From Bacteroidales bacterium (GTDB taxonomy: Bacteria; Bacteroidota; Bacteroidia; Bacteroidales; UBA932), in contig JAFVCK010000069.1 in the NCBI GenBank assembly GCA_017479265.1, positions 1 to 58,550 of the forward strand: a stretch of DNA of 58,550 nucleotides, written 5' to 3'. Shown here piece by piece: positions 30,575 through 48,144 of this stretch. The first letter of the stretch is position 1; every line of letters begins with the position of its first letter. Position numbers and translations under genes: made by a program. Below the pieces are notes generated by a model. It was not told where the DNA came from and made no database searches. It worked only from the letters and a program-made list of their open reading frames with translations.

Positions 30575-30588
30575 ATTCTGCTCCTCCA

Positions 30589-33500
30589 TTAGAATGTTAC
30601 ATTAAGACCGACGCTGTAAGTCCTCTGCTGGGGATAATAACCGTTGGTCAGGCCGGGGTTTTCCGGATCCAGATAGGGGAAATGGGAGAGAGTGAACAGG
30701 TTGGTACCTGCAAGATATACCATTACCCTCGACATTTTTGCCTTGCGGGTAATTCTTTCAGGAATGGTGTAGCTCAGCTGGAGGTTCTTAAGACGGATGT
30801 ATGAGCCATCGATGACCCACCTGTCGCAAAGCACGGCGTTGTTGGGGTTATATGAAGAACGCAGACGGGGATAGTATGCATTGGGATCCGGATTTGCAGG
30901 ATCAAAGGACTGCTCGACCAGATATCTGAATGCATTGCCGCCGGCTCCATACCAGGGACGGGTGAACATGGTATTGTCGGAAGAACCGCCAAAGGCCACG
31001 CCATTCTTGTCGTAATTACCGCAGATGATGAAGTTGGTCAAGGTGACACCATAGAACAGAGCCGACAGAGCGAAGCCCTTGTAAGACATCTCTATATTTA
31101 GGGATGCGTTCATCTCAGGCAGCTTGGAATAACCCAGCCATACATAATCACGGTTGTCGCGGGTAATCTTTCCGTCGCCGTTGGTATCGACATATCGGAA
31201 AGCACCGATTTCGACAGTGCCGGAAGGAGGGGTAGGAGCTGCATCGACTTCTTCCTGGGTCATGAACAGTCCGTTGGTCTTGAATCCGTACCACTGTCCC
31301 AGAGGCCTGCCGATTTCAATATTCTCGAGAGAATACTGGTCGGAAATATAGCGGGACAGAACCTTGTTCCTTGACCACGAAAGATTTCCGGTAATCGAAT
31401 AGTTGAATCCGGAAGGCAGCCAGTTGTCATGGCGTATGATGAGTTCGAAGCCCCTGTCGTCCATGGAACCGGTGTTCTGCCAGGTAGGGTTCTCTCCACC
31501 GAGGGAAGGAGAATAGTTGTTGCCGCCGCTTTGTTCGAGGATACGGTCCGTATATTTATAGAACCAGTCGAATCCTATGGTGAGTTTGTGCTTGAGGACA
31601 GTGAGGTCGAAACCGAAGTTATAAGCGGTAGTGTGGGACCAGGTCAAATCACTGTACACATAGGGATTGGTCGTATAGAAACCATATACCGGCTGTCCGC
31701 CAAGCGCCCAGGTGACACTCTTGCTGTTCTCAAAAGTAGAAAGGTAAAGATAAGGGGCGACATCGCTCGAACCGAGCTGACCTACGGATGCACGGAGTTT
31801 CAGATTGTCAATCCAGGTGACATTGCGCATGAAATTCTCCTTGCTCATTATCCAGCCCAGGGACAGTGAGGGGAAGAAGCCCCATCTGCCTTCAGGAGGG
31901 AATACGTATGATGCTTCCTCTCGTGCTGAGAGTTCGACCAGATACTTTTCGGCATAGTTGTATCCCAGACGTACTACGAAACCTGCGTTGCCGGTAGTCT
32001 TGTGGGAGCCGCTCTGGTAAGGATTGCTCTGCTCGGTTCCAAGGTCTATGTCAACAGGATTCGCTGCAGCATATTTCTTACGCCATGCACCCAGGAGGTC
32101 CTCGTAATATTTGGTCCTCTCGAACAGCGCAAGGACGGTAACGTTATGCTTTCCGAACGTGCGGTCATAGTTAATCTGGGGCCTCAGGGTGACACTGTTG
32201 CTCCAGTTCGTATGTTTGTTGAAACTATGCATTTCAATGCCTTCGGAAGTGTACTGGGCAATCTTGAAAGTATTTCTGTCAAAGCCATATACGGTAGTCT
32301 TCTGGAGGAACTGGTGCTCAGAATCCATATTATAGTTGACACCTCCGAAGAAGGAAAGCCTCAATCCGCGCAGGAAGGTCCTCTCAGGGAAAACATATTC
32401 GAGATTGCCCCTGGCCTGCCACTCCCAGGTCTCCCAAGTATGGGATCCGGAATTGGCCACTTCGTTGTTAGGGGAAAGTACAGCGCCGTTGTTGAGCATT
32501 CCGAGCGGCCATACACGGCCATTGTCGTCTGTATAGGTGCTGGCCAGGATAGGAAGCATGTAATTGGCTCGCTGTATGGGGTTGAAGTAACCCTGGTTGC
32601 CCATTGTAGCGTCATCGAATCCTGCGGAGTATCTCTTGGAGCGGCGAAGGGAAAGGTTGGCGTTGAAGGACAGGCCCTCGACAATCTGGGCATTCACATT
32701 CGCACGAACGTTGAAACGGTTGTAACCGGTATTCTTCACGGTACCTATCTGGTCCATGTAACCAACACTGCCAAAGTAAGTTACCTTATCCGTACCTCCG
32801 TTCACTGAGACATTGTGCTGCTGGAGAATACCAACCTTGTTGTAAATTTCATCGCGCCAGTTGGTATTGGCATAGACGCCGTCCTTCTTCATCTGCTCTA
32901 TAACCTCCGGAGTCCATTTGGGGGCTAGCCCGTCATTGGCGAGAGCCTTGTTGTACCAATAAATGTATCCTGCCTTGTCGTTGGGGTCGTCCGTTCCTGT
33001 CAGGAGCTCGGCCTCGTTGACATTGCGGGTCACGGTGAAAGAACCGTCGTAAGATACTGTAGCGTGGCCGCTCTTGCTTCCGCTCTTGGTAGTGATGATG
33101 ATGACACCGTTGCCTCCACGAACGCCATAGACAGCCGCGGCAGCAGCGTCCTTCAGCACGGATATACTCTCTATGTCATTGGGATTCAGGAAGTTCATGG
33201 AACCGCTTTCCATTCCGTCGATGATATATAGAGGGCGGTTGTTGGAACCGTAAGTGGATAAGCCTCGGATGGTAATATCGGCGGCATCGGCACCAGGAGT
33301 ACCGGTGGACTGAACCGCTGTGACACCTGCGAGCTTACCGGTGAGCATGTTGGAGACGTTGGTCTGGGGGGCCTTCTGGAGGTCCTTGGTGGTGACGGAC
33401 ACGACGGAACTTGTCATGAGTTCCTTCTTCTGCTCGCCATAGCCGATGACCACGACTTCGTCAAGGAAAAGATTGTCCTCCGAAAGGACCACCTTCATTC

Positions 33501-33792
33501 CGTCCTTTGCCGCTACGTCGATGTCGGCATAGCCGATGCAGGTCACTGTGAGGGTGGCTCCTGCAGGAACGGAGATGGTGAAACGGCCGTCCAGGTCAGT
33601 GTTTACACCGGTGGTGCTGCCTTTGAGTATGACAGCCGCACCGGGGACAGGATTGCCGCTATTGTCTGTCACGATGCCCGAAATCTTGACTGTAGCCTGC
33701 TCGGCTGCGGATACGGAAGACATTCCGCAAACCGCAGGGGCCACCAGCAAAACCATGGACATCAGTAACATTGTCAGTTTAGTTGCTTTCAT
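30589..33792 (-). CDS. SusC/RagA-family TonB-dependent transporter
   Basis: A 1067-residue outer-membrane transporter. Order: signal peptide (to about SVSAAEQA), carboxypeptidase-like regulatory domain (VKISGIVTDNSGNPVPGAAV), TonB box region and plug (DEVVVIGYGEQKK, IRGLSTYGSNNRPLYIIDG, RGGNGVIIITTKSG), then the 22-strand barrel ending in GLNVTF with the C-terminal Phe. Start 33792 (MKATKLTM) gives a normal signal peptide; an upstream ATG at 33825 overlaps the putative -7 box. It imports an oligomer or peptide in partnership with the SusD next to it. Confidence 0.95.
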   Translation of the reverse strand: MKATKLTMLLMSMVLLVAPAVCGMSSVSAAEQATVKISGIVTDNSGNPVPGAAVILKGSTTGVNTDLDGRFTISVPAGATLTVTCIGYADIDVAAKDGMKVVLSEDNLFLDEVVVIGYGEQKKELMTSSVVSVTTKDLQKAPQTNVSNMLTGKLAGVTAVQSTGTPGADAADITIRGLSTYGSNNRPLYIIDGMESGSMNFLNPNDIESISVLKDAAAAAVYGVRGGNGVIIITTKSGSKSGHATVSYDGSFTVTRNVNEAELLTGTDDPNDKAGYIYWYNKALANDGLAPKWTPEVIEQMKKDGVYANTNWRDEIYNKVGILQQHNVSVNGGTDKVTYFGSVGYMDQIGTVKNTGYNRFNVRANVNAQIVEGLSFNANLSLRRSKRYSAGFDDATMGNQGYFNPIQRANYMLPILASTYTDDNGRVWPLGMLNNGAVLSPNNEVANSGSHTWETWEWQARGNLEYVFPERTFLRGLRLSFFGGVNYNMDSEHQFLQKTTVYGFDRNTFKIAQYTSEGIEMHSFNKHTNWSNSVTLRPQINYDRTFGKHNVTVLALFERTKYYEDLLGAWRKKYAAANPVDIDLGTEQSNPYQSGSHKTTGNAGFVVRLGYNYAEKYLVELSAREEASYVFPPEGRWGFFPSLSLGWIMSKENFMRNVTWIDNLKLRASVGQLGSSDVAPYLYLSTFENSKSVTWALGGQPVYGFYTTNPYVYSDLTWSHTTAYNFGFDLTVLKHKLTIGFDWFYKYTDRILEQSGGNNYSPSLGGENPTWQNTGSMDDRGFELIIRHDNWLPSGFNYSITGNLSWSRNKVLSRYISDQYSLENIEIGRPLGQWYGFKTNGLFMTQEEVDAAPTPPSGTVEIGAFRYVDTNGDGKITRDNRDYVWLGYSKLPEMNASLNIEMSYKGFALSALFYGVTLTNFIICGNYDKNGVAFGGSSDNTMFTRPWYGAGGNAFRYLVEQSFDPANPDPNAYYPRLRSSYNPNNAVLCDRWVIDGSYIRLKNLQLSYTIPERITRKAKMSRVMVYLAGTNLFTLSHFPYLDPENPGLTNGYYPQQRTYSVGLNVTF

Positions 33793-33822
33793 AATCGTCT
33801 TTGTGGTTTTACAATTATTCCG

Positions 33823-33853
33823 CAATTTTAAGTATTTTTAATATCAAAAACAA
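33823..33853 (-). promoter_or_regulatory. Possible promoter of the SusC/SusD-DUF5018 operon
   Basis: On the minus strand TAAAATTG (33823-33830) deviates from the -7 box at one base. TTGT (33850-33853) lies 19 bases upstream. Weak match; such loci are often driven by regulated promoters. Confidence 0.3.
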
Positions 33854-35777: not shown

Positions 35778-35860
35778 GCGGTTGTGGTGAAATGGTAGAC
35801 ACGCTACTTTGAGGGGGTAGTGGGCGATGGCCCATGGGAGTTCGAGTCTCCCCAACCGCA
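35778..35860 (+). tRNA. tRNA-Leu (anticodon GAG)
   Basis: An 83-base class II tRNA. Acceptor arms GCGGTTG and CAACCGC pair exactly. The anticodon stem is CTACT/GGTAG with loop TTGAGGG, placing GAG at 35811-35813. A long variable arm TGGGC/GCCCA and a T arm GGGAG/CTCCC with TTCGAGT loop follow. The 3' CCA is not encoded. It has its own promoter and terminator. Confidence 0.97.
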
Positions 35861-35865
35861 CTTCA

Positions 35866-35892: not shown

Positions 35893-35993
35893 CGTATTCC
35901 ACAGCCTTGGCCTTTTCGGCCAAAAGCAGGCCTATAGGCACGAAAATCCAACATTTTGTCCGTTTTGTCCAAACGCGCACGCGTGTATGCAGT

Positions 35994-36045: not shown

Positions 36046-36072
36046 GGGCGCTCCAAAAAAAGCGCCCTTTTT
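36046..36072 (+). terminator. Terminator-like hairpin in the leader of the lipoprotein operon
   Basis: GGGCGCT (36046-36052) pairs perfectly with AGCGCCC (36061-36067), followed by five T. It lies between the -7 box at 35994 and the start codon at 36110, so it would stop or attenuate transcription unless overcome. Confidence 0.75.
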
Positions 36073-36109
36073 ACGAAATAATTCCACGAAATAATAATGC
36101 GACGTTTAT

Positions 36110-37444
36110 ATGAAAAAATTGTTCTACTACCTGGCAGCGGCTGTGGCGCTCGCTTCCTGCTCCGGCAGCAAAGATGACGGTCCGTCGGAAGACCCGTCCA
36201 AGGACGGACAGCCTGACGTGAAGGTGGAAATCCGCATGGAAGGCTCGGAAGCGGCTTTTTCAACAGAGATAAGCCATTCGGTAAGGGTCCGCGAATATGC
36301 CAACATCGAAGTTCAGATTACTCCTGCGGATGCCGCTGCGAAAATCACATACGAAACTGACGATATCAACATTGCCAGGGTAAGCCGCAATGGCACCATC
36401 ACCGGCCGCAACGAAGGCAAAACCGACATCAAGGTGCTCGCTGACGGAGCCGTCAAGGCCGTATGCCACCTCACCGTGGAGGAATATGAAGCGGTGGTGA
36501 CGGAATTCAACCTGGACGTGTCGGAAGTGGAGATGGAATGGGGTTCTACCATGAGGACCGTCGTCAAAAAGATAAGTCCTTCCGCCATTTCCGTGGGAGA
36601 CACCAGATTCGAGTTCTCCTCCTCGGATGAAAGCATATTCACCGTTGAGAACGATGAAGACGGATTCGGTTGCAAGATAACGGGCGAACACCCGGGCGAG
36701 GGCACTCTCCACGTGGAAGTCAAATCCGCCACCCTGGACATTCCTGTCGTCATTACCAAAAAGAGGGTGGGCCTTGAGTCCTGGCGCTTCGAGGGTCCCT
36801 TCAACAATATGGAGCCTCAGGTGTTCCACAAGGAGGCCCTGACTGTCTATTATCCCACCTTTACCGACGTATATCTGTTCGATGAGGTGTCTCGAAAGCG
36901 TCTGGATGACGGCTACAACGGCAAATACAGCGTGGACAATAACAACAAGGAGACAGTCAACGCCGCCGCGTTCGAGGATTGCGTAAGCCTGGCTGCAAAG
37001 GGCAACGGCACCTCCGATGACGAGGGATGGGGCTCCGTGACCCTCCATTATGAAAACGATCTCGTCGTCTCGGACATCGACCTTGAAATCGAATTCCGGG
37101 GATTCAACGGAATGCACGGAGACATGACCATAGTCGAGGACAACCCCAACAGTGACGATTACGGCAAGGACCTCTGCACTCAGACGCACAGCATTTCCTC
37201 GAAAGGCTTCATCAAGATCCGTCTGGGCCGCAAGAGCGGAGAGGAGCTCAAGGGAGTCTATCGCCCCAATTCGGACAGGGAATGGGTGAAACTCGTAACT
37301 GAAGGACTCGACATAGTCCGCTGGGACAGCCGCACGCTCTACCTCTATGCGACGGTTTCCAAAGATGCGACCCAGTGCATGGTATTGTTTCAGGGCCAAT
37401 ATGGCTCAGTTAAAATTCTTGTAGTAAACTATACAGTCAAATGA
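36110..37444 (+). CDS. Surface lipoprotein with Ig-like (BIG2-type) domains
   Basis: A 444-residue lipoprotein (MKKLFYYLAAAVALASC, then GSKDDGPSEDPSKDG, an acidic tether of the kind that sends Bacteroidetes lipoproteins to the surface). Residues about 35-125 are a BIG2-like domain (ANIEVQITPADAAAKITYET, ISRNGTITGR-type turn seen as VSRNGTITGRNEGKTDIKVL). A second Ig-like stretch follows to about 215. The C-terminal half (about 220-444) is an unrecognised beta-rich domain. Its stop overlaps the next start by four bases (ATGA). It opens the five-gene lipoprotein operon. Function unknown. Confidence 0.78.
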   Translation: MKKLFYYLAAAVALASCSGSKDDGPSEDPSKDGQPDVKVEIRMEGSEAAFSTEISHSVRVREYANIEVQITPADAAAKITYETDDINIARVSRNGTITGRNEGKTDIKVLADGAVKAVCHLTVEEYEAVVTEFNLDVSEVEMEWGSTMRTVVKKISPSAISVGDTRFEFSSSDESIFTVENDEDGFGCKITGEHPGEGTLHVEVKSATLDIPVVITKKRVGLESWRFEGPFNNMEPQVFHKEALTVYYPTFTDVYLFDEVSRKRLDDGYNGKYSVDNNNKETVNAAAFEDCVSLAAKGNGTSDDEGWGSVTLHYENDLVVSDIDLEIEFRGFNGMHGDMTIVEDNPNSDDYGKDLCTQTHSISSKGFIKIRLGRKSGEELKGVYRPNSDREWVKLVTEGLDIVRWDSRTLYLYATVSKDATQCMVLFQGQYGSVKILVVNYTVK

Positions 37445-38598
37445 AAACAAAGTTATTGACCATCCTATGCGCCATGCTGTGCGGGGCGGCAGTGCTCTCC
37501 TGCGATGGCTACGATGCAGATGCCGAACTCAAGGCACTTGAGGAGGAAATGGACCGTCTCGAACAGGAGGACAAGCACATAAGGGAGCATTTCTTGGAGA
37601 AGATAAACTCTCTGCGGGGCCGACTTACAGAACTCATCTCCCAGGTGGAGCAGGAACTTAATGACAAGATTGAACAGGGCGGCCGTGCTGTGCTGAGTGC
37701 ACTTAACAAAAAAGTCAGTGCACTGACAAAAAGAATCAACGACGGCTTTGACAGTACCAGGGACTATATGGACGAGTCCTTTTCCAAATGCGAGAATCAC
37801 ATACAGGATACTTTCGAAGCCCTTGCGAAGAAGCAGCAGGCATTGGAAATAAAGATTGACGATGCCCGCATCAAGGGGGAAGAGGATCATCTGGCTGCCC
37901 TGATGATTATGGAAAAGAATCTTGGACTGATTACAAAGGACGTCGAGAACGTCCAATCGGCCATCAAGAAAGTGGAAGACCGTCTTTCCAACGCAGAGGA
38001 TATGAAAAGGAGGGCACAGAAGGTGTCTGTTGCCCTGGATGACCTTGATGAAGCCTATTCGGAAATGGAGAGACAGCAGCTCAGCCTTTTGAAGGCCCTG
38101 GAGGACGAGATTACCGACGATTATCTCGCCAGTCTCACATCGGCCCAGCTCGCCCAGGTCAAGAATCTCGTAGCTGAGGCGGAAGATATCCTGGATGATA
38201 TTGAAGCCTGCAAGAACAATCTCTCTGGTCGGGCGACTGATTCCGAAGACTACCTTTCCCAGATGGAGGACCTTGCCGATTTCGTGGACAGTATGAACAG
38301 CGACTATGATTCGATAGTCGGGGACCTTCTCGACGGAATCTCCGACATCGAGGAATTCTGGGAGTTTTTCGAAGATAACGAAGCAGCAGACTGGTATGAT
38401 GAAATTGATTCTCTTGTGGAGGAGAACCGTTCACTCTATCAGGAAGTCCTCGCAAATATCGAGGAACAGAATGACAGAATCGAAGATTTTTACAGCGTGG
38501 TGTGGGACTGGTATGATACCGTGGAAGGCGACTGCAATGATGTCTATAATTATGCAGACCACGCAAAGGACAAAGCAGAAGAAATAATGAACCTATGA
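37441..38598 (+). CDS. Coiled-coil lipoprotein 1
   Basis: A 385-residue lipoprotein (lipobox AAVLSC, Cys 21, then DGYDADAELKALEEEMDRLE). Nearly all the mature protein is predicted helical with heptad patterns: an N-terminal mixed-charge coil (about 25-235) and an acidic second half (about 236-385) rich in D/E with few prolines (EDYLSQMEDLADFVDSM). The phrase LTSAQLAQVKNLVAEAED near residue 240 corresponds to LTEDQIRDVNEMLESIQN in the third protein of the set. No globular domain is seen. The gene is coupled by ATGA overlaps on both sides. Not a family I recognise. Confidence 0.8.
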   Translation: MKTKLLTILCAMLCGAAVLSCDGYDADAELKALEEEMDRLEQEDKHIREHFLEKINSLRGRLTELISQVEQELNDKIEQGGRAVLSALNKKVSALTKRINDGFDSTRDYMDESFSKCENHIQDTFEALAKKQQALEIKIDDARIKGEEDHLAALMIMEKNLGLITKDVENVQSAIKKVEDRLSNAEDMKRRAQKVSVALDDLDEAYSEMERQQLSLLKALEDEITDDYLASLTSAQLAQVKNLVAEAEDILDDIEACKNNLSGRATDSEDYLSQMEDLADFVDSMNSDYDSIVGDLLDGISDIEEFWEFFEDNEAADWYDEIDSLVEENRSLYQEVLANIEEQNDRIEDFYSVVWDWYDTVEGDCNDVYNYADHAKDKAEEIMNL

Positions 38599-39710
38599 GA
38601 ACCAAGTATCTGATTCTTGCCATCTGCGTGATGGCGGCATGTGTTTCCTGCAGCAAGCAATATGACGATAGGATTGCGGCTCTGAAAGAGAGGTCGGAAG
38701 CCTTGCACAAGGCCGACAAGGAAACCAAGGATATGCTGATTGGGGAGATGAATCGCCTGTCAGACGATATCGACAACCTTCTCTTTCAAATGGAAGACAG
38801 GGTCCTGGACAGGCTCGATAAGATGATTCAGGGAGTTGAAGACAAAATCCTGGAGCAGAATGTCCTCGTCAACAAATCCATCAAAGAGCAGTCCGATAAA
38901 CTCGACAGGGATATTTACCAGTGGCGCAGCGACCTTGACAAAATGGTGGAGGACAACACTCTGAAACTGGAAAATAGCAGACAGACTCTGGAAAAAAGCC
39001 TGCAGAAGGCTATTTCCGAGGGGAACTACACCCTCGTTTCCAGAATTCGTGCAGGATTGAAAAATCTTGACGCCTTGAAAGGAGGCCTGGGCACTTATGT
39101 TAAAAAGGTACAGGCGAGGGTAGATGCCCTGGAAGACCTTGAAAAGCTCACGACGGACACCAAAAAGGCTGTGGATGACCTGAAATGGCGCAGGGAAGAT
39201 ATGCTTGTTGCCTTGGATGAATATGAGGACAGGATGTCAGCTATTATTGAATCTGAATTGGAGAAAAATGCAAACTCCAACCTGTGTGATGCAGTGGACT
39301 ATATGATATCCCTCTACGAATCGGCCAGAGATATCTATGAGGAGTCCGCCGGCTACCTGGACGATATAGACTCCTACTTCTCTTCACTCCCTGACATTGA
39401 GGGACTTTTGAGTGAAACGCAGGCCATCCTGGACAACTGCTCAGAGGTGGAAAGCATGCTGGATGACATGGATAATGGGACTGTTGACGATGTCCTCGCC
39501 ACGCTGTCCGATGCAATTGAACACGCCTCTGAGGGGGATGTTTCCATCGCGGATGTCGAAAGCGCCTATGATGAGGTTCTGAAAAACAGTCACGATTTTC
39601 TCGACGATACCAACGATATAATGGACACTTTTGACAACGTCATAGGAATCCTTGAAGACGAGATTGGAAATGTGGAGGCCCTGATTTCCGATGTAGAAGG
39701 CAAATTCTGA
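38595..39710 (+). CDS. Coiled-coil lipoprotein 2
   Basis: A 371-residue lipoprotein (lipobox AACVSC, then SKQYDDRIAALKERSEAL). The organisation matches its neighbours: a heptad-rich N-terminal rod (KLDRDIYQWRSDLDKMVEDN, DDLKWRREDMLVALDEYEDR), a short hinge near residue 225 (NANSNLCDAVDYM), then a strongly acidic helical end (VESMLDDMDNGTVDDVLATL). It starts inside the previous stop codon. The three proteins share length, layout and charge asymmetry, but sequence identity by eye is low. They may form rods standing out from the outer membrane; this is inference. Confidence 0.8.
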   Translation: MRTKYLILAICVMAACVSCSKQYDDRIAALKERSEALHKADKETKDMLIGEMNRLSDDIDNLLFQMEDRVLDRLDKMIQGVEDKILEQNVLVNKSIKEQSDKLDRDIYQWRSDLDKMVEDNTLKLENSRQTLEKSLQKAISEGNYTLVSRIRAGLKNLDALKGGLGTYVKKVQARVDALEDLEKLTTDTKKAVDDLKWRREDMLVALDEYEDRMSAIIESELEKNANSNLCDAVDYMISLYESARDIYEESAGYLDDIDSYFSSLPDIEGLLSETQAILDNCSEVESMLDDMDNGTVDDVLATLSDAIEHASEGDVSIADVESAYDEVLKNSHDFLDDTNDIMDTFDNVIGILEDEIGNVEALISDVEGKF

Positions 39711-39745
39711 TTTCCGTCGCGGAGGACAAATAAATGATTCAGAAG

Positions 39746-40894
39746 ATGAAAAGAATTATTTGCATTGCAGCCATTCTGCTGTCTGTAGTGACGGCATGTG
39801 GCACGAGGTCTGAAATAGAGGACTTGAAAAAAGATGTAAAATCGCTGAAAGAGGCCGATGCCGCCCTGTGGGAGGAGATGACCGCGGCGATAGATGCCCT
39901 TGAGAAGGATTTGTTCGGCCGGATTCAGGCGACGAAAGACAGGCTGAACAAGACGATTGACGAGGCTCTTGCAGACCTGTACGGGCTTATGGACAATAAA
40001 TTGGCCGCCACGCAGAAATATTTTGAAACAGAAATAGCTTCCAAGCGGGAAAAGATAGACAACAATGTCAAGCAGGTCAAAGAGAGCAACGACAAAGCCA
40101 TGGAAAGCCTGGATATGGCCCTTGACTACACAAAAGAACAACTCCAGAAGGCGCTGGACGAAAGTCAGCAGGAGAGGGCCGAGCTTTTGGAGCAGTTTGC
40201 CACAGAGATAGAAGGCATGCAGAAGCAGCTGGAGGAGGTTTGGCTTTCTGTTGACACCTGGCGCGAGCGGCTTGACAATCTTCAGGATGAAGGAATCTAC
40301 AGGGATATTGAAGAGATGGAAGAGAATCTCAAAGTGCTGCAGTCCTTCGAGCTTCAGGAGAGAGTGGATTTCCTCGAAGAGAAACTGAAAAAATATGCTG
40401 CTATCATTCTGGATGACCTGACTGAAGATCAGATTCGGGATGTGAACGAAATGCTTGAATCCATCCAGAACTACTACAGCGAAGTCGAAAACTTCATGAG
40501 CGAGGCCGATGACATGACAGACGAAATGGAAGATCTTCTGAGCGAGTGGGAGTCAAGTGCAAATGACCTGTTCGATGAAATAGCCTCCTATACGTCCGAA
40601 CTCGACGACAGGCTGGTTGCTTTTTCCGATGAGATAGAATCCTCATACGAAGAAGCCGTCGGTCTTGTTGAAAATGCTGAGAGCTGGAAGTCCCGCCTGG
40701 AGTCGGTCCAGGAGGATTTGGAGACCTTCAATGACAAGACCTTGGCGATAGAAGATGAATACGACGGCAACCGCGAAGATGTGTACTCAAAGACTCAGGA
40801 TATCATTGAAACACGAAACTATCTGTACGATTTGAGTCAGGATTTGACGGATGTGTGCTCACAATTCGAAGACAGCCACCCTTGGTTATTTTGA
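39746..40894 (+). CDS. Coiled-coil lipoprotein 3
   Basis: A 382-residue lipoprotein. The start MKRIICIAAILLSVVTAC (39746) gives a clean lipobox; an ATG at 39734 would add four residues. The N-terminal rod (EIEDLKKDVKSLKEADAALW, KLAATQKYFETEIASKREKI) runs to about residue 220. After LTEDQIRDVNEMLESIQN comes an acidic helical tail (MTDEMEDLLSEWESSANDLF). It ends DSHPWLF. The gap to coil 2 is 35 bases and to the next gene 18 bases, so all five are likely one transcript. Function not recognised. Confidence 0.8.
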   Translation: MKRIICIAAILLSVVTACGTRSEIEDLKKDVKSLKEADAALWEEMTAAIDALEKDLFGRIQATKDRLNKTIDEALADLYGLMDNKLAATQKYFETEIASKREKIDNNVKQVKESNDKAMESLDMALDYTKEQLQKALDESQQERAELLEQFATEIEGMQKQLEEVWLSVDTWRERLDNLQDEGIYRDIEEMEENLKVLQSFELQERVDFLEEKLKKYAAIILDDLTEDQIRDVNEMLESIQNYYSEVENFMSEADDMTDEMEDLLSEWESSANDLFDEIASYTSELDDRLVAFSDEIESSYEEAVGLVENAESWKSRLESVQEDLETFNDKTLAIEDEYDGNREDVYSKTQDIIETRNYLYDLSQDLTDVCSQFEDSHPWLF

Positions 40895-40912
40895 TTAATA
40901 TTACACCAATAT

Positions 40913-42313
40913 ATGAAAAAGTTACTTTACATTACAGCAGCATTGCTGGTGGCGCTGGCCGCCTGCAAGAAACCGGATGTGACACCGGACCCTTCCAAGG
41001 AGCCCTCCACAAATCCTTCGGAAGAGCCCTCCGGCAGTCCTTCATCAGACGATCCGAGTTCAAGCCCTGAATCGGAACTCAAAGTGAGCGTCAAGCTTTC
41101 CGATGTTTATGACATTGAAGGGACAAAGGCAAAGGTTGATATAACCATTACTGTAGAGAACAACAAGTCGGACGATGTTTTCGTGGCCGTTTTTTGCAGT
41201 GACAATAAAGAAGACTTCCACGAGGACGTAGCCGAATTGAATCTCAAGATACCGGTTCCCAAGCAGACCGTAGAGCTCTATCACCTTGACCCGGCAACCA
41301 CCTACTATGTCTTGGCCGGGGTCGAGATAGACGATGCCTGGACAAACAGCAATGTCGTATCTTTCACTATGCCTGAGTCTCCGCAGCTCAACATAGAGAT
41401 GGAGACCGGAGAAGCGGATGAAATCAGGCTGCATAATGCAATCCTCTACGGCAGCGCCACAGTCACCAATGCGCCTGCCGGATGGGAGCCGGCAGAAAGC
41501 TGGTTCTATCTTAGCAGCAAGGAGAAGAAGGCTGACGACATTATCAGCAACGGCATGAAGTTCTACGCAGGAACGGTCGATGACCCCGACATATCCTCAG
41601 AAATTGAAGACCTCGAGGCCGGTACGAAATACTATTATGTACTCTCTGCCGAGGCCGATGGAAAGGTATTCCATGGAGATGTCCGTTCCTTCACGACAAA
41701 ATCTTTCGGCGAAGTAGCCAAGGCCGTCGACCTGGGCCTGTCGGTAAAGTGGGCAGATGTCAATCTAGGCTCTGAGTATTATTGGGACAACGAGGAGTAT
41801 TTCGCATGGGGAGAAACCATGTTGAAGTATGAATTTACCGTTGAAAACTACTCGCTGTGGGAAGTAGATGGCAGTGGTAACATAACCGTCACCAAGTACA
41901 CCGGAAAAAATGGAAGCGATACGGCTAAGAAACTGTCCCTTTCCGATGACACCGCCTACAAGCTTATGGGACGCGAGTGGAAAATGCCAACCAAGGCCAA
42001 CTTCGACGAACTCATCGAAAAGTGTATCTGGGAATGGGTTTCAAGCTCTTCATGCTATAAGGTCACAGGCCCCAGCGGCGAATCTATCTACCTCCCCGTG
42101 CGCAGTTTTATGGATGAAGATGACCTGCATTGGAACTGTATGGGAAAACTCGCTTTCTACTGGGCATCAGACTTCGACTATAACAGCGACGAAGAGACTT
42201 TTTCGTACGCACTCAGGCTCAACACCACCTGGTACAAGCCCAACTATACATACGTTGTCACCGATTTGGAGCGTTACTACGGCTGCGCAATCCGCGCCGT
42301 CGCGAGAGAGTAA
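40913..42313 (+). CDS. Lipoprotein with FN3-like modules and FISUMP-like domain
   Basis: A 466-residue lipoprotein (lipobox VALAAC, then a PS-rich tether with DPSKEPSTNPSEEPS). Two FN3-like modules cover about 55-165 and 165-270 (YHLDPATTYYVLAGV; DLEAGTKYYYVLSAEADG). From about residue 275 comes a FISUMP/Fib_succ_major-type domain: VDLGLSVKWADVNLG, FAWGET, REWKMPTKANFDELIEKC, then YYGCAIRAVARE at the end. That domain is common in Bacteroidetes surface proteins of unknown function. It closes the operon and is followed by a bidirectional hairpin terminator. Confidence 0.8.
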   Translation: MKKLLYITAALLVALAACKKPDVTPDPSKEPSTNPSEEPSGSPSSDDPSSSPESELKVSVKLSDVYDIEGTKAKVDITITVENNKSDDVFVAVFCSDNKEDFHEDVAELNLKIPVPKQTVELYHLDPATTYYVLAGVEIDDAWTNSNVVSFTMPESPQLNIEMETGEADEIRLHNAILYGSATVTNAPAGWEPAESWFYLSSKEKKADDIISNGMKFYAGTVDDPDISSEIEDLEAGTKYYYVLSAEADGKVFHGDVRSFTTKSFGEVAKAVDLGLSVKWADVNLGSEYYWDNEEYFAWGETMLKYEFTVENYSLWEVDGSGNITVTKYTGKNGSDTAKKLSLSDDTAYKLMGREWKMPTKANFDELIEKCIWEWVSSSSCYKVTGPSGESIYLPVRSFMDEDDLHWNCMGKLAFYWASDFDYNSDEETFSYALRLNTTWYKPNYTYVVTDLERYYGCAIRAVARE

Positions 42314-42385: not shown

Positions 42386-45300
42386 TTAGTTCAGGGCGAA
42401 CACCACGGAACTGTATCCGGGGAGGGTAACCGTAGCACCGTCCGCCATGTTGCCCGACACCGTGACCTTGCCGTTCGCCACCAGTATGTTGGAAGAGGAC
42501 ACGTTCTCTCCCGGCCAGCGGACCACGCCTGTGGTGTGGGAAGAGAAGTTGTGCAGCACAAGCACCACCTTGCCGGAGCCGTCGTTGGCATGCAGATACC
42601 ATCCTGCAACATGGCCGTCATAGCCTGAATAGCTGCGCTCGTCAGCCTCGGGATAGCCGTCCGCAAGGGCGGGATTGATGTTCCTTGCATAAGCGAAATG
42701 CCTGTAGAGGGTCAGCAATGAAGTCTCGTCCTCGCTCTGGCTCTCAACGCTGATGGATGAGGTCAGCATATTCCAGTCCACCTTGTTGGAAACGCCCTTG
42801 GAGGCCGCTGAAGACTGGGAAGAGGTCCACATTATAGGAGTACGGACATACTCGTCACCTCCTGCCTTGGTGCCCCAATAGCCAAGTTCCTCGCCCTGAT
42901 AGATGTAGGGACGGCCGGCTGCCGTCAGCAGGACTGCGGCTGCAAGGCGGATCTTCGGCTTGTAATTGCCGAGGGTAGAAGCGGTACGGTCCTCGTCATG
43001 GTTGGCCAGCTTGGGCGTAGCTATGGCATCGGTGCGCTGCTCTTTGTGATTGTACCAACGATAAGGCAAGGACTGGGGGAAGTTCTGACCGTAGCCGGCA
43101 TTCCAGATGGTCTCACCGCCAAGGCACTCGCGAAGGTCCCACCAGAACTGGAACTCGAACAGGGCCGGCAGACACTGGTAGAAAGGAGTGCAGTCGCCGT
43201 CGCCGGAGAGCACCTCGCCTACCATGAATATGTCGGAATCGCTCCAGGACAGGCCCGTGCGTGAGGAAGCGTTATCCTTGTATATCTTGTTGCAGGCGGA
43301 GTAGAAGGCCTTCCAGAAAGCCTTGTTCTCGGGGCCTGTCTCGTTGCAGTAGATATGCTTGACGGCATCCAGACGGAATCCGTCAACACCCATCTTGAGC
43401 CATTTCTCGGCGCTTCCCACCACGGCCTTGAAGGCTGCGGAAGAAGCCACGTCGGTGGACTTGCCATAGTCGAAGTCCACGAACATTCCCGTTCCGAACT
43501 CTGTATAATAGTAGTACATGTCGCCGCCCGGCATCACAATGTTCAGCACATCGTCGCTCTCGCCCTGGTACAGGGTATGGGCCACGCCGTACTGGAGCTG
43601 GTCACCTGTCTTGTTGAAACCCCACTTCGTACCCTTGGACCAGTCGTCGGCCTTGGTGGTACGGATAAGGCAGCCCCATGAAGACTCGAAATCAAGCACA
43701 AGCACATATTTGTTCGTACCGTTGTCGGCGAACTGCGTGTAGGTGCTGCTGCCCCAGAAGAGGTAACGGGCAGGATTGTTATGGCTTGCGGAAGGCGATG
43801 TCACCGCATCCGTAGTCTTGGAAACCGTCATGGTAGGAGCGGAAGCATTGCTCCAGTCAAGTTCAATCTTCAGCCTTTCCTTTCCGCCTCCGCCAATCAG
43901 AACGGGGAACCACTTGCCGCTGTCATATCCGCAGTTGGCCTGAGGAATCTTGCCGGCCGCAACATCGGCCTGAGGATTCTTGGACAGGGAATAATAGTTC
44001 CAATAAGGGGATGAGGTGCCGTTCTTCTTGACATCGAGGAACCACTTGTTCTGGTCGCCGCTGTGGTTGATTACATAGTCAAGATAGATGCGGATATTGT
44101 GCTTGTGGGCCTCTGAAACGAGTTTCTGGAAGTCGGCCTCGGTTCCGAAACGGGGGTTGACGGTCTCATAGTCAGTCACATCGTATCCATGATAGGACTG
44201 GGCAGGCTGTATAGGAGACAGCCACAGGCCGGTCACGCCGAGACGGTCGAAATAATCGAGTTTCTCGGTAATGCCGTTGAAGTCACCGTAGCCGTCGCCG
44301 TTGGAATCGCGGAAGCTGAACACATTGACCTGGTAGGTAAGGCCGGAAGCCTTGTCGGAGGGCACCTTGACGAAAGCGTCGGGGTCGAAGTCTCCGCCGA
44401 GGTCCACTTCGGGCTTGCCCTCGGCCTCATGGGTCCAAGCAGTGCCGGCAGCAAGTATATAGGCTATCTTCTTCTCCGCGGCAAGATAAATGTCATACTC
44501 CCCTGCCGTGGCGACTACCATGTTGCCGCCGGAAGAAACCATGTCCATCTTGATGCCGATGGTGACATTGTTCTCCGTGTCGGCAGCGCCAAGGCCCAGG
44601 TTGTTGCTCCAGGTGCGGTTCTGGCGGAACTTGAGTTTCTCGCCTGCGGCTATGGAAACGCCCTTTGCGACCTCCCAGTAGCCTTCCGTATCCATGGGGA
44701 AGTCATAATCCCAGTTGGTAGAGCCGAGGGTGCCGATGATGGTCCAGGAACTGGTGCCGAACTTGATTTCCTTGGGCTCGATTCCCTTTCCGCTCACTCC
44801 GGGAGCGGCAGGGTCATCTATAACGGACACGCTCTTGCCGTCGAAGGCGAAGTACATGGTGGTATTGACCGTAAGGTTGCTCCATGCAGGGTCCTGAGTA
44901 TCGGGAGCGGGATACTGGTTGGAGCCTCCGTCGTTGAGAATCAGGCTCACGCCGGACACATCGGTGAATCCTGAAGCCTCCCAGTAGGTATATGTATATT
45001 CTCCTATTACCTTGGTGCCGGAAGCATAGGTGCCCGGCCAGCTGCCGTAGGGCTGATATCCGCCGCCACCGGCATACGCATACATGTAAGGAGTATCCCA
45101 GGTGGAATTGTTGAGCACGTATATACGCACGTTCTCGCCCTCCTGCCGGTCGCCCTTGGCATCTCCGTGGGCGAATTCATCTCCGGCCTTCTCCACATAG
45201 AGAATCATGTAGGAAGGATGGATGTAGAAGTCATATTTGCCTGCGGCAATCTGGAAGTTGCCTCCGTTGTCTGCCAGGGCATACTTGCGGTCTATCGAGG

Positions 45301-45955
45301 GCTGGCCTGCACCTGCGCCGAGGTTGAGGTCCCATGCGCCGTCCTTGCGGAACTTGAAGAGGTCCTCGGCAGCGATGTCTATGTCAAATGCAGCCGTCCA
45401 TCCACTCTGCACGTCCTCGTACATGGGGATATCCTCGTCATCGGAAAGACCCCAGTTATGGCCCATGAGGGTGCCTGTCACGCCCCAGGTGGAAAGCAGG
45501 TCGAAACGCTCGCGGGGAATGACCTCGCCGGGCTCCTCGGGCTCCTGGGAAATATCAGGGTTCACGGAAGGGTCGCTGCTGACCTCCGGCTCCGGCTCTC
45601 CCTTTCCGGACTGGCGCACCGGTATGTCCAGGGTCACGGAAGGATTGGACACCAAGGAGATGTGTATGGTACAACTGCGCTCTACTCCTTCATTGGGGCT
45701 GGCCGTTGCAATCACGGTCTTGGGCCCCGTCGCGGCCTTTTCATCTAATTCAAGCCATGCCTCGGACACCTCTGCGGTCCAGGCAGCCTTGGTCTGCACC
45801 GCGAATGGCTTGGCATCGCCGTCTCCCTTGAATGTCAGCTCGCTGACATTGGACTTGATCTGGGTGTCGGTCGGCTCCACCTCCCCTCTCTTCTTGCAGG
45901 AAAAGAGGGTTGAAACAGTCAAAAGGACCAGCACCGTACTAAATAATCTTTTCAT
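42386..45955 (-). CDS. Multimodular GH13 alpha-amylase lipoprotein
   Basis: A 1189-residue surface lipoprotein (lipobox TLFSC). Modules in order: BACON domain (about 30-110); a PS-rich linker; a SusE/F-like starch-binding domain (about 147-255, WGVTGTLMGHNWG); a CBM26-like module (about 275-370, VRIYVLNNSTWDTPYMYAY); a second SusE/F-like domain (about 393-510, SWTIIGTLGSTNWD); then GH13 from about 540. Catalytic residues: Asp in DGFRLDAVKH near 861, Glu in FMVGEVLS near 914, Asp in LANHDEDR near 984. A stretch of about 130 residues (680-810) is inserted before region II, where SusG carries CBM58. It should cut alpha-1,4 glucans. It is six bases after the other amylase gene. Confidence 0.92.
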   Translation of the reverse strand: MKRLFSTVLVLLTVSTLFSCKKRGEVEPTDTQIKSNVSELTFKGDGDAKPFAVQTKAAWTAEVSEAWLELDEKAATGPKTVIATASPNEGVERSCTIHISLVSNPSVTLDIPVRQSGKGEPEPEVSSDPSVNPDISQEPEEPGEVIPRERFDLLSTWGVTGTLMGHNWGLSDDEDIPMYEDVQSGWTAAFDIDIAAEDLFKFRKDGAWDLNLGAGAGQPSIDRKYALADNGGNFQIAAGKYDFYIHPSYMILYVEKAGDEFAHGDAKGDRQEGENVRIYVLNNSTWDTPYMYAYAGGGGYQPYGSWPGTYASGTKVIGEYTYTYWEASGFTDVSGVSLILNDGGSNQYPAPDTQDPAWSNLTVNTTMYFAFDGKSVSVIDDPAAPGVSGKGIEPKEIKFGTSSWTIIGTLGSTNWDYDFPMDTEGYWEVAKGVSIAAGEKLKFRQNRTWSNNLGLGAADTENNVTIGIKMDMVSSGGNMVVATAGEYDIYLAAEKKIAYILAAGTAWTHEAEGKPEVDLGGDFDPDAFVKVPSDKASGLTYQVNVFSFRDSNGDGYGDFNGITEKLDYFDRLGVTGLWLSPIQPAQSYHGYDVTDYETVNPRFGTEADFQKLVSEAHKHNIRIYLDYVINHSGDQNKWFLDVKKNGTSSPYWNYYSLSKNPQADVAAGKIPQANCGYDSGKWFPVLIGGGGKERLKIELDWSNASAPTMTVSKTTDAVTSPSASHNNPARYLFWGSSTYTQFADNGTNKYVLVLDFESSWGCLIRTTKADDWSKGTKWGFNKTGDQLQYGVAHTLYQGESDDVLNIVMPGGDMYYYYTEFGTGMFVDFDYGKSTDVASSAAFKAVVGSAEKWLKMGVDGFRLDAVKHIYCNETGPENKAFWKAFYSACNKIYKDNASSRTGLSWSDSDIFMVGEVLSGDGDCTPFYQCLPALFEFQFWWDLRECLGGETIWNAGYGQNFPQSLPYRWYNHKEQRTDAIATPKLANHDEDRTASTLGNYKPKIRLAAAVLLTAAGRPYIYQGEELGYWGTKAGGDEYVRTPIMWTSSQSSAASKGVSNKVDWNMLTSSISVESQSEDETSLLTLYRHFAYARNINPALADGYPEADERSYSGYDGHVAGWYLHANDGSGKVVLVLHNFSSHTTGVVRWPGENVSSSNILVANGKVTVSGNMADGATVTLPGYSSVVFALN

Positions 45956-45961
45956 ATCGAG

Positions 45962-48094
45962 TTATTGTTTGAATACAACTGAAGAGTTGCCGCCAAGGGT
46001 GAGGGAACTTCCTGATACCGAGAAGGTTCCGAGACTGACGACGGCTTCCGAGAGCTTGTCGCCGGAAAAGTCCAGGGTAATCTGCGAAGAGCCGAAGTTA
46101 TGCACTACGAGCATCTTCTCCCCTGAATCGGCCTCCATGTACCAGACGGCAGGAGCACCGACCGAGGAATTGGAATCGTTATACTTTGCGTGGCGGGCCA
46201 TGCTACCCGCTCCGAGGGACTCCCAGGTGTTGCGGGCCTCGGCAAAGCGCTTGTAAACATTCAGTATGGAATCATCATTGCCGCTCTGTGCCTCGACTGA
46301 AATCGAAGGCGTGAGCATGGCATTGTCTATCTTTCCGGAGAGTTTCTTGGAGGCCAGGCCGCTGCCGTCCGACTTCCACATGATAGGGGTACGCACCCAC
46401 TCGTCGCCGCTCTGCTTGCTGCCCCAGTAGCCGAGTTCCTCGCCCGAATAGATATAGGGCTCGCCGCCGGCAGTCAGCAGCACCGCCCCAGCCTGCTTCA
46501 TCTTGGGAAGGCTCTTGCCGAGGGTCGTACCGGTACGGTCCTCGTCGTGGTTGGACAGTTTGGAAGCCTCGACATAGTCGCTGCGGTACTTGGCATACAG
46601 GGGCTGATAAGAGGCTATGTCCTTGTAGAAATAGCAGCCCGTACCGTTGTTGAGAGCCCACTGCAGGCGGTTCCAGAAGCTGAACTCGAAGAATCCGGGC
46701 ATGCCGGCATAATAGGGAGCCACCTCCCCTGCCTCGCTGTACTGCTCTCCCACCATGTAGAATTCGCCCTTGCCGCCGGAGAGCTTGTAGGCGCGGTTGC
46801 AGCGGTCGTACCACTTGCCCAGGAACACGGGGTTGTCCGTGCTGTTGGCATTGTGATAGATATGCTTGACGGCATCAAGGCGAAGGCCGTCTATCCCGAA
46901 GCCTATCCACTTGTCCACGGTTGAAGCCAGATGATTGAATGCCAGGGACTTCTCGCTCTCGGAAGCCTTGTGGTAGTTCCAGTCTGCGAACCAGTCCGTC
47001 CACATGTGGGAATGGTAGAATTCGCCTGCGGCGAAAGTGATGTCATTTGCGGCATCTCCGCTGACGAGGGTCTTGGGAGTGCCGAAGGTAACTGCCTGGT
47101 CGCCCACTGCCGCACCCCATTTGTCGTTGCCCCACGAAGAGGTGCTTGTCCTTATGAGGAAGCCCCAGTCGGAGTCGAAATCGACGGTAATCTCAAACTT
47201 GTTGCTGCCGGCAGAATACATGCGGACATTGCCCTTGGTGCCGTAGAAAAGGTATTTCTGCACGGAAGCATCGCTGTTGGAGGTCTGTGCAGGCTCGGTC
47301 GTTTCGGTGACCGTAACCGTAGGTTTTGAAGAATTGGACCAGTCCAGCAGGAAGTGGAAACGGCCCTTGGCACCAAGTCCGGAAGAAACCGGGGACTTGT
47401 ACCACTGATTGCCCTGATAGGCATCCGGCGAATTGGATGGAATCATCTCTATCCTGCCGGCTGCTATATCGGCCTTGGGATTGGAAGAGAATATGAAAGC
47501 GCTCCTCCATTCGCTGCTCTTGCTCCTGGCCGCCGCAAGGAAATAAGGATGGTCCTTGCCGGCATGGTTCAGAACATAGTCCAGATATATCTTTATGCCC
47601 TTCTGGTGGGCTGCATGGATAAGGCTCCTGAGGTCATCCTCGCTGCCATACTCCTTGTTGACGGCGGAATAGTCGGTAATGTCATATCCATGATAGGACA
47701 TTGCAGGATGAATAGGAGACAGCCAGATGGCCTTGCACCCTAGGGACTCAATGTAGTCAAGGTGCTGCTCTATTCCCTTGAAGTCGCCTATTCCGTCGCC
47801 GTTGCTGTCGGCGAAACTATAGACCAGCAGCTGATAGGTGATGGTGCCTTTCTTGCCGCTGTCCACGAAGTCGTCTTCCCTTTGTGAAACATAGATCTGG
47901 GCGGAATGGTCGGTCCCGTCACCATGGGAAGGGTCATCGTCTTCTACAGGCTCCGACGATGCATCAGGTGAGGATGAGGCATCCTCGGACACGGGGTCGC
48001 CCGAGCCATCGATTACATTGTTCCTGTCCTTTTCGCAAGACAGCAGAAGCCCTGCGGAAATGATAACCGAAATAAGCAGACTGAAACGTTTCAT
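45962..48094 (-). CDS. SusG-like GH13 alpha-amylase lipoprotein
   Basis: A 710-residue lipoprotein close in size and layout to SusG. The lipobox is GLLLSC, followed by an acidic tether (SGDPVSEDASSSPDASSEP). GH13 region: DYVLNHAGKDHPYF, Asp in DGLRLDAVKH near 406, Glu in FYMVGEQYSE near 450, Asp in LSNHDEDR near 516. An insert at about 228-358 matches the CBM58 position of SusG. It hydrolyses starch at the cell surface so SusC can import the products. Start 48094 (MKRFSLL) is used because the ATG at 48118 lies in the terminator hairpin. It is probably a paralogue of the next gene's catalytic part. Confidence 0.92.
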   Translation of the reverse strand: MKRFSLLISVIISAGLLLSCEKDRNNVIDGSGDPVSEDASSSPDASSEPVEDDDPSHGDGTDHSAQIYVSQREDDFVDSGKKGTITYQLLVYSFADSNGDGIGDFKGIEQHLDYIESLGCKAIWLSPIHPAMSYHGYDITDYSAVNKEYGSEDDLRSLIHAAHQKGIKIYLDYVLNHAGKDHPYFLAAARSKSSEWRSAFIFSSNPKADIAAGRIEMIPSNSPDAYQGNQWYKSPVSSGLGAKGRFHFLLDWSNSSKPTVTVTETTEPAQTSNSDASVQKYLFYGTKGNVRMYSAGSNKFEITVDFDSDWGFLIRTSTSSWGNDKWGAAVGDQAVTFGTPKTLVSGDAANDITFAAGEFYHSHMWTDWFADWNYHKASESEKSLAFNHLASTVDKWIGFGIDGLRLDAVKHIYHNANSTDNPVFLGKWYDRCNRAYKLSGGKGEFYMVGEQYSEAGEVAPYYAGMPGFFEFSFWNRLQWALNNGTGCYFYKDIASYQPLYAKYRSDYVEASKLSNHDEDRTGTTLGKSLPKMKQAGAVLLTAGGEPYIYSGEELGYWGSKQSGDEWVRTPIMWKSDGSGLASKKLSGKIDNAMLTPSISVEAQSGNDDSILNVYKRFAEARNTWESLGAGSMARHAKYNDSNSSVGAPAVWYMEADSGEKMLVVHNFGSSQITLDFSGDKLSEAVVSLGTFSVSGSSLTLGGNSSVVFKQ

Positions 48095-48106
48095 AGGGAA
48101 AATATT

Positions 48107-48144
48107 TAAAAGTGGCATACGGCCACGTCCCGCCGTATGCCACT
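48107..48144 (-). terminator. Terminator or attenuator between the SusE/F and amylase genes
   Basis: AGTGGCATACGGC (48111-48123) pairs perfectly with GCCGTATGCCACT (48132-48144), 8-base loop. On the minus strand it is followed by TTTTAAATATTTT. It would reduce read-through from susC-D-E/F into the two amylase genes. Confidence 0.8.

What the first reader, a model, noticed from the sequence alone, without database searches (positions are those of the whole stretch)
36110..42313. Five-gene lipoprotein operon with three consecutive all-coiled-coil proteins
Five lipoprotein genes lie head to tail, three of the four junctions being four-base ATGA overlaps or gaps under 40 bases. Genes 2-4 (385, 371 and 382 residues) are of near-equal length and consist almost wholly of heptad-pattern helix, with a mixed-charge first half and an acidic second half. 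Genes 2 and 3 of the coil set share an LTxxQ(I/L)xxV phrase at the hinge. They are flanked by an Ig-like lipoprotein and a FN3/FISUMP-like one, both with surface-type tethers. I know no described system of this shape. A rod-like surface or periplasm-spanning assembly is a reasonable guess.
Basis: partly seen in the sequence, partly recalled or inferred. Interest (0 to 1): 0.75.

Follow-up and report, generated by a model that had tools for sequence, protein, structure and literature searches.

The report
Mobile three-coil surface lipoprotein operon
A Bacteroidales genome related to rumen bacteria carries a gene cassette for an Ig-like lipoprotein and three related, almost entirely helical lipoproteins that stand together in the same order in the six places found; they probably build a shared rod on the cell envelope, but what that rod does is not known.

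Summary
In detail: five head-to-tail lipoprotein genes, the middle three (A, B, C; 385, 371, 382 aa) helical, mixed-charge then acidic. Corrections: the shared first 140 residues follow an 11-residue (hendecad, about 3.65 residues/turn) not a heptad pattern in 15 of 15 sequences, and the LTxxQ phrase is in A and C, not B. The unit (Big_2 lipoprotein-A-B-C) recurs as six loci in 4 of 400 sampled genomes of the genus (twice in the window's own genome), and in no other of 393 genomes sampled across the order. A, B and C are paralogues; each forms its own clade and their trees show no supported conflict, so they are inherited as a triad. In the one close pair measured they are under purifying selection. 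The cassette is accessory: a sister genome has an empty site where its relative holds a 7.8-kb insert, and the window copy lies 3' of tRNA-Leu at a variable spot. No Pfam, NCBIfam or PADLOC family fits the coils. Best reading: a horizontally moving module for a hetero-oligomeric helical stalk on the outer membrane, with an Ig-like partner. Hetero-assembly, surface exposure and function are inferred; AlphaFold monomer models of A and C are low-confidence and lean towards folded-back bundles.

The parts
35778..35861 (+). tRNA-Leu(gag), directly upstream; the operon lies at its 3' side, a variable spot in the genus
35955..35972 (+). upstream element TTNGTCCNNTTNNTCCAA, drawn from the leaders of the three five-gene cassettes (window, L032, L033); promoter or regulator site (role inferred)
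   Evidence: in 7 genomes scanned, one hit at each of the three source sites (by construction), 1 other hit in G000, none in the 4 other genomes; the reversed control pattern hit twice
36110..37444 (+). gene 1: Big_2 (Ig-like) lipoprotein, 444 aa; a homologue heads all six loci
37441..38598 (+). coil protein A, 385 aa lipoprotein
37522..37941 (+). A: 140-residue gap-free hendecad block (residues 28-167)
38595..39710 (+). coil protein B, 371 aa lipoprotein
38667..39086 (+). B: 140-residue gap-free hendecad block (residues 25-164)
39746..40894 (+). coil protein C, 382 aa lipoprotein (386 aa if started at 39734)
39809..40228 (+). C: 140-residue gap-free hendecad block (residues 22-161)
40913..42313 (+). 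gene 5: lipoprotein, 466 aa, FN3/FISUMP-like by eye; present in 3 of 6 loci (window, L032, L033)

Best explanation
An accessory, horizontally moving gene cassette for a three-chain helical lipoprotein assembly of the outer membrane. Shown: A, B and C are homologous to each other, stand as a triad in one order behind a Big_2 lipoprotein in six of six loci, are under purifying selection in the one close pair measured, share an uninterrupted 140-residue hendecad segment next to the lipid anchor and an acidic distal half, and lie in differing gene neighbourhoods, with an empty site in one sister genome. Inferred: the three chains, each lipid-anchored, pack in register through the hendecad segment into a nearly straight hetero-oligomeric stalk (140 residues of helix span about 21 nm by arithmetic), with the acidic halves as the distal part; the Ig-like lipoprotein and, in the five-gene form, the gene-5 lipoprotein act as partner or tip proteins; the whole serves attachment or ligand capture at the cell surface.
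For: Six loci read Big_2 lipoprotein-A-B-C. Profile-profile homology A-B, B-C, A-C with probability 98.9-99.6 over 325-340 columns, scores 131-182 against at most 54 for reversed controls. In the 18-protein tree A, B and C are each one clade (support 85/94, 100/100, 100/99), and the single-type trees share the two deep splits with no supported conflict. 140 gap-free columns across 18 proteins and 98.0-99.0 degree periodicity in 15 of 15; 11/3 gives 3.67 residues per turn, slightly right-handed and close to an unstrained helix (PMC4786415, passages). dN/dS 0.08-0.19 for A, B, C between G273 and G278. The quarter next to the anchor is the most conserved, mean identity 0.39-0.44 against 0.20-0.34 further on. 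Empty site in G273 and a tRNA-Leu-adjacent variable spot.
Against: No direct evidence of interaction: the charge cross-correlation between chains of one locus differs from that between loci by at most 0.012 at any shift (no error bars computed). AlphaFold monomer models of C and A (mean pLDDT 69 and 74, pTM 0.47 and 0.53) break the chains into several long helices, and their alignment to elongated helical bundles suggests that they fold back; this fits a self-contained bundle as well as a stalk. C lacks acidic residues at +2 to +6 after the cysteine in 4 of 6 loci, so surface display of C is doubtful. 11-residue amphipathic helices also occur in lipid-binding proteins. All genomes with the cassette are incomplete MAGs, so mis-binned contigs cannot be excluded. 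Nothing identifies a ligand.
Confidence: 0.5

Rival explanations
1. Three paralogous coil lipoproteins that each form their own monomeric bundle or homo-oligomer; the operon is a set of alternative or additive surface stalks, not one complex.
For: AlphaFold monomer models of A and C lean towards chains folded back on themselves; no hetero-specific charge signal.
Against: One A, one B and one C in one order in six of six loci; trees without supported conflict; no locus seen with a member lost or doubled (within the candidate caps of the searches).
Confidence: 0.22
2. A periplasm-facing spacer or scaffold anchored in the outer membrane, reaching towards peptidoglycan or the inner membrane.
For: About 21 nm for the 140-residue block is of periplasmic scale (arithmetic and recalled dimensions); C lacks acidic residues after the cysteine in 4 of 6 loci.
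Against: No peptidoglycan-binding domain among the Pfam matches of the five window proteins; the partner is an Ig-like domain; patchy occurrence (4 of 400 genomes) fits a dispensable surface trait better than an envelope scaffold; an acidic residue at +2 to +6 is present in 6 of 6 A and 5 of 6 B.
Confidence: 0.15
3. A tripartite alpha-helical pore-forming toxin of the Nhe/Hbl/Ahl kind, lipid-anchored.
For: Three adjacent genes for related, helical proteins of 371-385 aa; one very weak match of C to the alpha-xenorhabdolysin A family (E 0.33, 10.2 bits against a cut-off of 125).
Against: No hydrophobic head: the highest 19-residue Kyte-Doolittle mean is 1.04 in 18 chains, whereas two of the three Ahl and Nhe components have hydrophobic stretches of 22-63 residues (PMC6602965, passages); no HBL-type Pfam match listed at E up to 1; lipoboxes.
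Confidence: 0.04
4. Amphipathic lipid-coating helices of the apolipoprotein kind, for example for outer-membrane vesicles.
For: 11-residue periodicity; sub-threshold Pfam Apolipoprotein match (C, E 1.6e-6, 28.4 bits against a cut-off of 90) and apolipoprotein A-IV chains in a PDB search with the B profile (E 0.0014 and 0.0098).
Against: Narrow hydrophobic stripe: two of 11 positions at 0.75-0.76 LIVMF, the others at most 0.36, and LIVMF only 26-28% overall, as expected for a coiled coil; strongly acidic distal half.
Confidence: 0.05

Closest known systems
Bacteroidota surface lipoproteins with a short coil after the lipobox (DUF4988-type; name recalled)
   Same: Lipobox followed at once by an acidic YDxEI...L coil; the phylum search matched the first 91 profile positions to such a protein in a 934-codon open frame (L096)
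   Different: There the coil seems a short stalk before long non-coil sequence; here nearly the whole 370-390 aa is helix and three paralogues stand in a row
Trimeric autotransporter adhesin stalks (recalled; a reference title on their right-handed coil segments was seen in PMC4786415)
   Same: Long surface coil with a non-heptad, nearly straight or right-handed segment joined to a heptad-like one
   Different: Here lipid-anchored, three different chains from three genes; no beta-barrel anchor or head domain among the Pfam matches
Tripartite alpha-pore-forming toxins (Nhe, Hbl, Ahl)
   Same: Three adjacent genes for related helical chains of like length
   Different: No hydrophobic head or tongue, lipoboxes present, no HBL-family match
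Hetero-trimeric coiled coils such as fibrinogen or the Nsp1 nucleoporin trimer
   Same: Paralogous chains in one rod is the analogy; sub-threshold match of C to Fib_alpha (22.6 bits, cut-off 29.9) and of the B profile to Nsp1/NUP62 chains (E 9.2e-6)
   Different: Eukaryotic; the matches cover only 103-126 residues and look like generic coil similarity

Membership tests
Tripartite alpha-pore-forming toxin (HBL/Nhe/Ahl) | Three adjacent genes for related helical proteins | tested here: met
   helix by model for A and C only, B by periodicity
Tripartite alpha-pore-forming toxin (HBL/Nhe/Ahl) | Hydrophobic head or tongue in at least two components | tested here: not met
   maximum 19-residue Kyte-Doolittle mean 1.04 over 18 chains; feature as in PMC6602965 (passages)
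Tripartite alpha-pore-forming toxin (HBL/Nhe/Ahl) | Match to the HBL family by profile | tested here: not met
   not among the families listed at E up to 1 for A, B or C; one search lists alpha-xenorhabdolysin A for C at E 0.33, far below its cut-off
Trimeric autotransporter adhesin | C-terminal beta-barrel anchor | tested here: not met
   models of A and C are all helix (B not modelled); no such family listed for A, B or C
Outer-membrane lipoprotein | Signal peptide with lipobox cysteine | tested here: met
   exact cysteine unclear in B of the window and C of L006
Surface-exposed Bacteroidota lipoprotein | Acidic export signal directly after the cysteine | tested here: inconclusive
   acidic residue at +2 to +6 in 6 of 6 A, 5 of 6 B (the miss uses a doubtful cysteine), 2 of 6 C; signal as in PMC5080379 (passages)
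Known coil family in Pfam or NCBIfam | Score above the curated cut-off | tested here: not met
   none of the listed matches of A, B, C reaches its cut-off
Hetero-trimeric coiled coil | Physical A-B-C complex | not testable with these tools
   multimer prediction not on hand; the charge test is inconclusive

The most novel reading that the evidence does not exclude
A new kind of bacterial surface appendage: a hetero-oligomeric, lipid-anchored stalk made of three co-inherited paralogous hendecad helices with an acidic distal half and an Ig-like partner, exchanged between rumen Bacteroidales as a discrete cassette.
Probability: 0.35. Interest if true: 0.78.

Novelty: new variant of a known kind. 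Interest (0 to 1): 0.58.

Why it matters
If the triad forms one rod, it would be a lipid-anchored, hetero-oligomeric coiled-coil appendage of a design not met in the searches made here, in a large genus of mostly uncultured bacteria. It would also give a natural system (three paralogous chains, five clearly diverged sets) for learning how hendecad coils encode hetero-specificity, and it marks a mobile surface trait in rumen bacteria whose cell-surface biology is little known.

Tried and rejected

Recent transfer between G273 and G278: first taken from 95% identity of the block against 68% of the neighbouring AraC gene, then doubted because gltX is also 94-95% identical, then partly restored by synonymous distances: A, B, C and gene 5 0.09-0.18 against miaA 0.51, the flanking lipoprotein 0.59 and part of gltX 0.22. 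Only these three flank genes were measured and gltX is nearly as low, so transfer after the split is likely but not proved; the empty site is the firm part. The gene-1 pair failed in that script (my coordinates were out of frame) and is not in the table; its protein identity is 85%, lower than the 95-98% of A, B, C and gene 5, with the difference at its start. No clear orthologous place of the L032 flank was found in G278 (partial matches of 71-78%).

Heteromer test by charge cross-correlation: no locus-specific signal. A regulon for the upstream element: none seen; in 7 genomes it hits its three source sites and one other place in G000, and the reversed control hits twice. Relatives of B in phage, plasmid and viral-contig collections: none. 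Coil A alone as query: 1 of 61 relatives, the own genome. Beyond the genus: order sample 1 of 393 genomes, the own one (which also held a few other genomes of the genus and family); phylum sample 4 of 395, own plus three with partial coil matches of 91-109 positions. In the profile searches only the best 4-6 candidates per genome were scored, and the genome-contig scan rested on one short B motif, so distant triads could be missed.

Literature: searches aimed at such a system and at its context showed no described system of this shape in their listings; beyond listings I saw only passages of PMC5080379, PMC4786415 and PMC6602965. The library lacks most subscription journals.
Full report
What is there. 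Window 36110-42313 holds five ORFs on the + strand: a 444-aa lipoprotein with a Big_2 Ig-like domain above the Pfam cut-off (42.2 bits against 22.8), three helical lipoproteins A (385 aa), B (371) and C (382, or 386 from an upstream ATG), and a 466-aa lipoprotein that looks FN3/FISUMP-like by eye but reaches no curated cut-off. Two junctions are ATGA overlaps and the other two are gaps of 23 or 35 and of 18 bases. A tRNA-Leu(gag) gene lies upstream at 35778-35861.

The same unit elsewhere. The window's own genome (G000, 77 contigs, 89% complete) has a second set on contig C19: Big_2-like lipoprotein, A', B', C', without gene 5. Position by position identity is 28-29%, and A of the window is 18-23% identical to the B and C proteins. 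A profile of the six coils matched 12 of 300 genomes of the genus: four with triads, eight with single partial matches inside open frames of 639-1411 codons. The B profile found the same four genomes among 400. The six loci (G000 twice, G273 twice, G278, G115) read Big_2-type lipoprotein, A, B, C; gene 5 follows in three (window, L032, L033). The Big_2 domain passes its cut-off in the window, L034 and L035 and scores 20.4 against 22.8 in L006; the L032 and L033 proteins were not scanned but are 65% identical to the window protein, and L006 matches it over about 130 residues. Outside the genus nothing comparable was seen: 1 of 393 genomes in an order sample, the own, and in a phylum sample of 395 the own plus partial coil matches in three. 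Only 4-6 candidates per genome were scored, so this is a lower bound.

A, B and C are one family kept as a triad. hhalign gives 99.3, 98.9 and 99.6% for A-B, B-C and A-C over 325-340 columns; against reversed profiles the best is 89.7% over 110 columns, with about a third of the forward score. In a tree of 18 proteins A, B and C are each one clade (support 85/94, 100/100, 100/99). In the single-type trees two splits recur with support in each type, window+L032+L033 and L034+L035; the L032+L033 pair has support in the 18-protein tree for each type but is left open in the separate B and C trees; no supported conflict was seen.

Anatomy of the coils. After the lipobox, 140 columns are gap-free in the 18 proteins. 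Hydrophobic residues there repeat at 98.0-99.0 degrees in 15 of 15 sequences (L033 left out as a near copy of L032), about 3.65 residues per turn; power at the heptad angle is at most 0.5 against peaks of 2.0-3.7, and 300 column shuffles of the mean profile reach at most 0.93 against 3.05. This is a hendecad (11/3) coil, slightly right-handed and nearly unstrained (PMC4786415, passages). Folded modulo 11, two positions are 75-76% LIVMF and the rest at most 36%: a narrow core stripe, as in a coiled coil. In the last 150 residues the best angle is 101.5-102 in B and C, near the heptad, and 99.5-101 in A; second halves are net -36 to -49 in 18 of 18. No stretch is hydrophobic enough for a membrane span (highest 19-residue mean 1.04). 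AlphaFold models from six-row alignments are all helix: C with helices 21-138 and 227-377 and shorter ones between, A with breaks near 80, 146, 224-233 and 313; mean pLDDT 69 and 74, pTM 0.47 and 0.53. B was not modelled. Their structural neighbours are elongated bundles of many kinds, which leans towards chains folded back on themselves; the models do not test hetero-assembly. The LTxxQ phrase of A and C begins at a helix break in each model (about residue 232 in A and 225 in C); the break is of low confidence in C only.

Selection and mobility. Between G273 and G278 A, B and C have dS 0.09-0.13 and dN/dS 0.08-0.19, so they are maintained. In G278 the cassette with a divergent TPR-AraC regulator lies between miaA and a lipoprotein-gltX pair, an insert of about 7.8 kb (L033 890-8675); in G273 the same flanks are aligned 27 bases apart on one contig (L053), and G273 carries a cassette on another contig. 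The synonymous distance of A, B, C and gene 5 (0.09-0.18) is lower than that of miaA (0.51) and the flanking lipoprotein (0.59), and little lower than gltX (0.22). These genomes are MAGs, so the contig with the G273 cassette could be mis-binned; the empty site itself is read within one contig. In the window the operon follows tRNA-Leu. Of the 29 best-matching rpsP loci of other genomes (from a sample of 101, ranked by match to a query that includes the tRNA), 20 keep rpsP and tRNA-Leu within about 260 bases, 3 have the tRNA 0.85-1.2 kb away and 6 lack it in the stretch held; in none of the 20 does the coil operon show in the up to 1500 bases behind the tRNA (only 293 in L072), and what follows is varied, though three pairs of loci share a neighbour (neighbours judged by eye). 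I saw no integrase in the cassettes (by eye), so the means of movement is unknown. An upstream element is shared by the three five-gene cassettes.

How it most likely works. Shown: homology of the three, strict co-occurrence, purifying selection in one pair, lipoboxes, a shared gap-free hendecad segment, an acidic distal part, accessory status. Inferred: in-register packing of the three chains into a nearly straight stalk of about 21 nm plus an acidic distal part, partnered by the Ig-like lipoprotein, on the outside of the outer membrane, serving attachment or ligand capture. The weakest links are hetero-assembly (no direct signal) and sidedness of C. I put about 0.5 on the whole reading, higher on 'A, B and C work together' than on 'outside the cell' or 'adhesion'.

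Compared with what is known. By the tests made it is not a member of the tripartite pore-forming toxins (no hydrophobic head, no profile match above cut-off, lipoboxes) nor of trimeric autotransporters (no barrel). It shares the lipobox-plus-coil start with Bacteroidota surface lipoproteins such as L096. The paper searches named under Tried and rejected listed no described system of this shape, in a library that lacks most subscription journals. I therefore rate it a new variant of a known kind (surface lipoprotein operons), with a categorically new appendage as the bolder reading.

Noticed in passing
window 36049-36075: A G+C-rich inverted repeat followed by a run of T lies in the leader between the shared upstream element and gene 1 (by eye); it could attenuate the operon.
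   Followed up: no
window 28880-33825 and 42386-48118: SusC/SusD-like genes (by eye) and two SusG-like alpha-amylases (Pfam Alpha-amylase, SusG_CBM58) flank the region; an amylase-family gene also lies beside the second set in L006. Probably the ordinary richness of such genomes in carbohydrate loci.
   Followed up: partly
tRNA-Leu(gag), window 35778-35861, and its counterparts in L061-L088: The 3' side of this tRNA is a variable spot across the genus; in L064 a recombinase-like gene lies there (by eye).
   Followed up: partly
L032 11283-12917 and L033 7035-8675: Divergent TPR-AraC regulators (HTH_18, TPR) beside two cassettes are only 63% identical, while A, B, C and gene 5 of these cassettes are 95-98% identical.
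   Followed up: partly
L034 7078-8310: A separate lipoprotein joining Big_2 repeats to a domain with a sub-threshold Lcl_C match (FISUMP-like by eye) lies downstream of this set, as if gene 1 and gene 5 types were fused.
   Followed up: no
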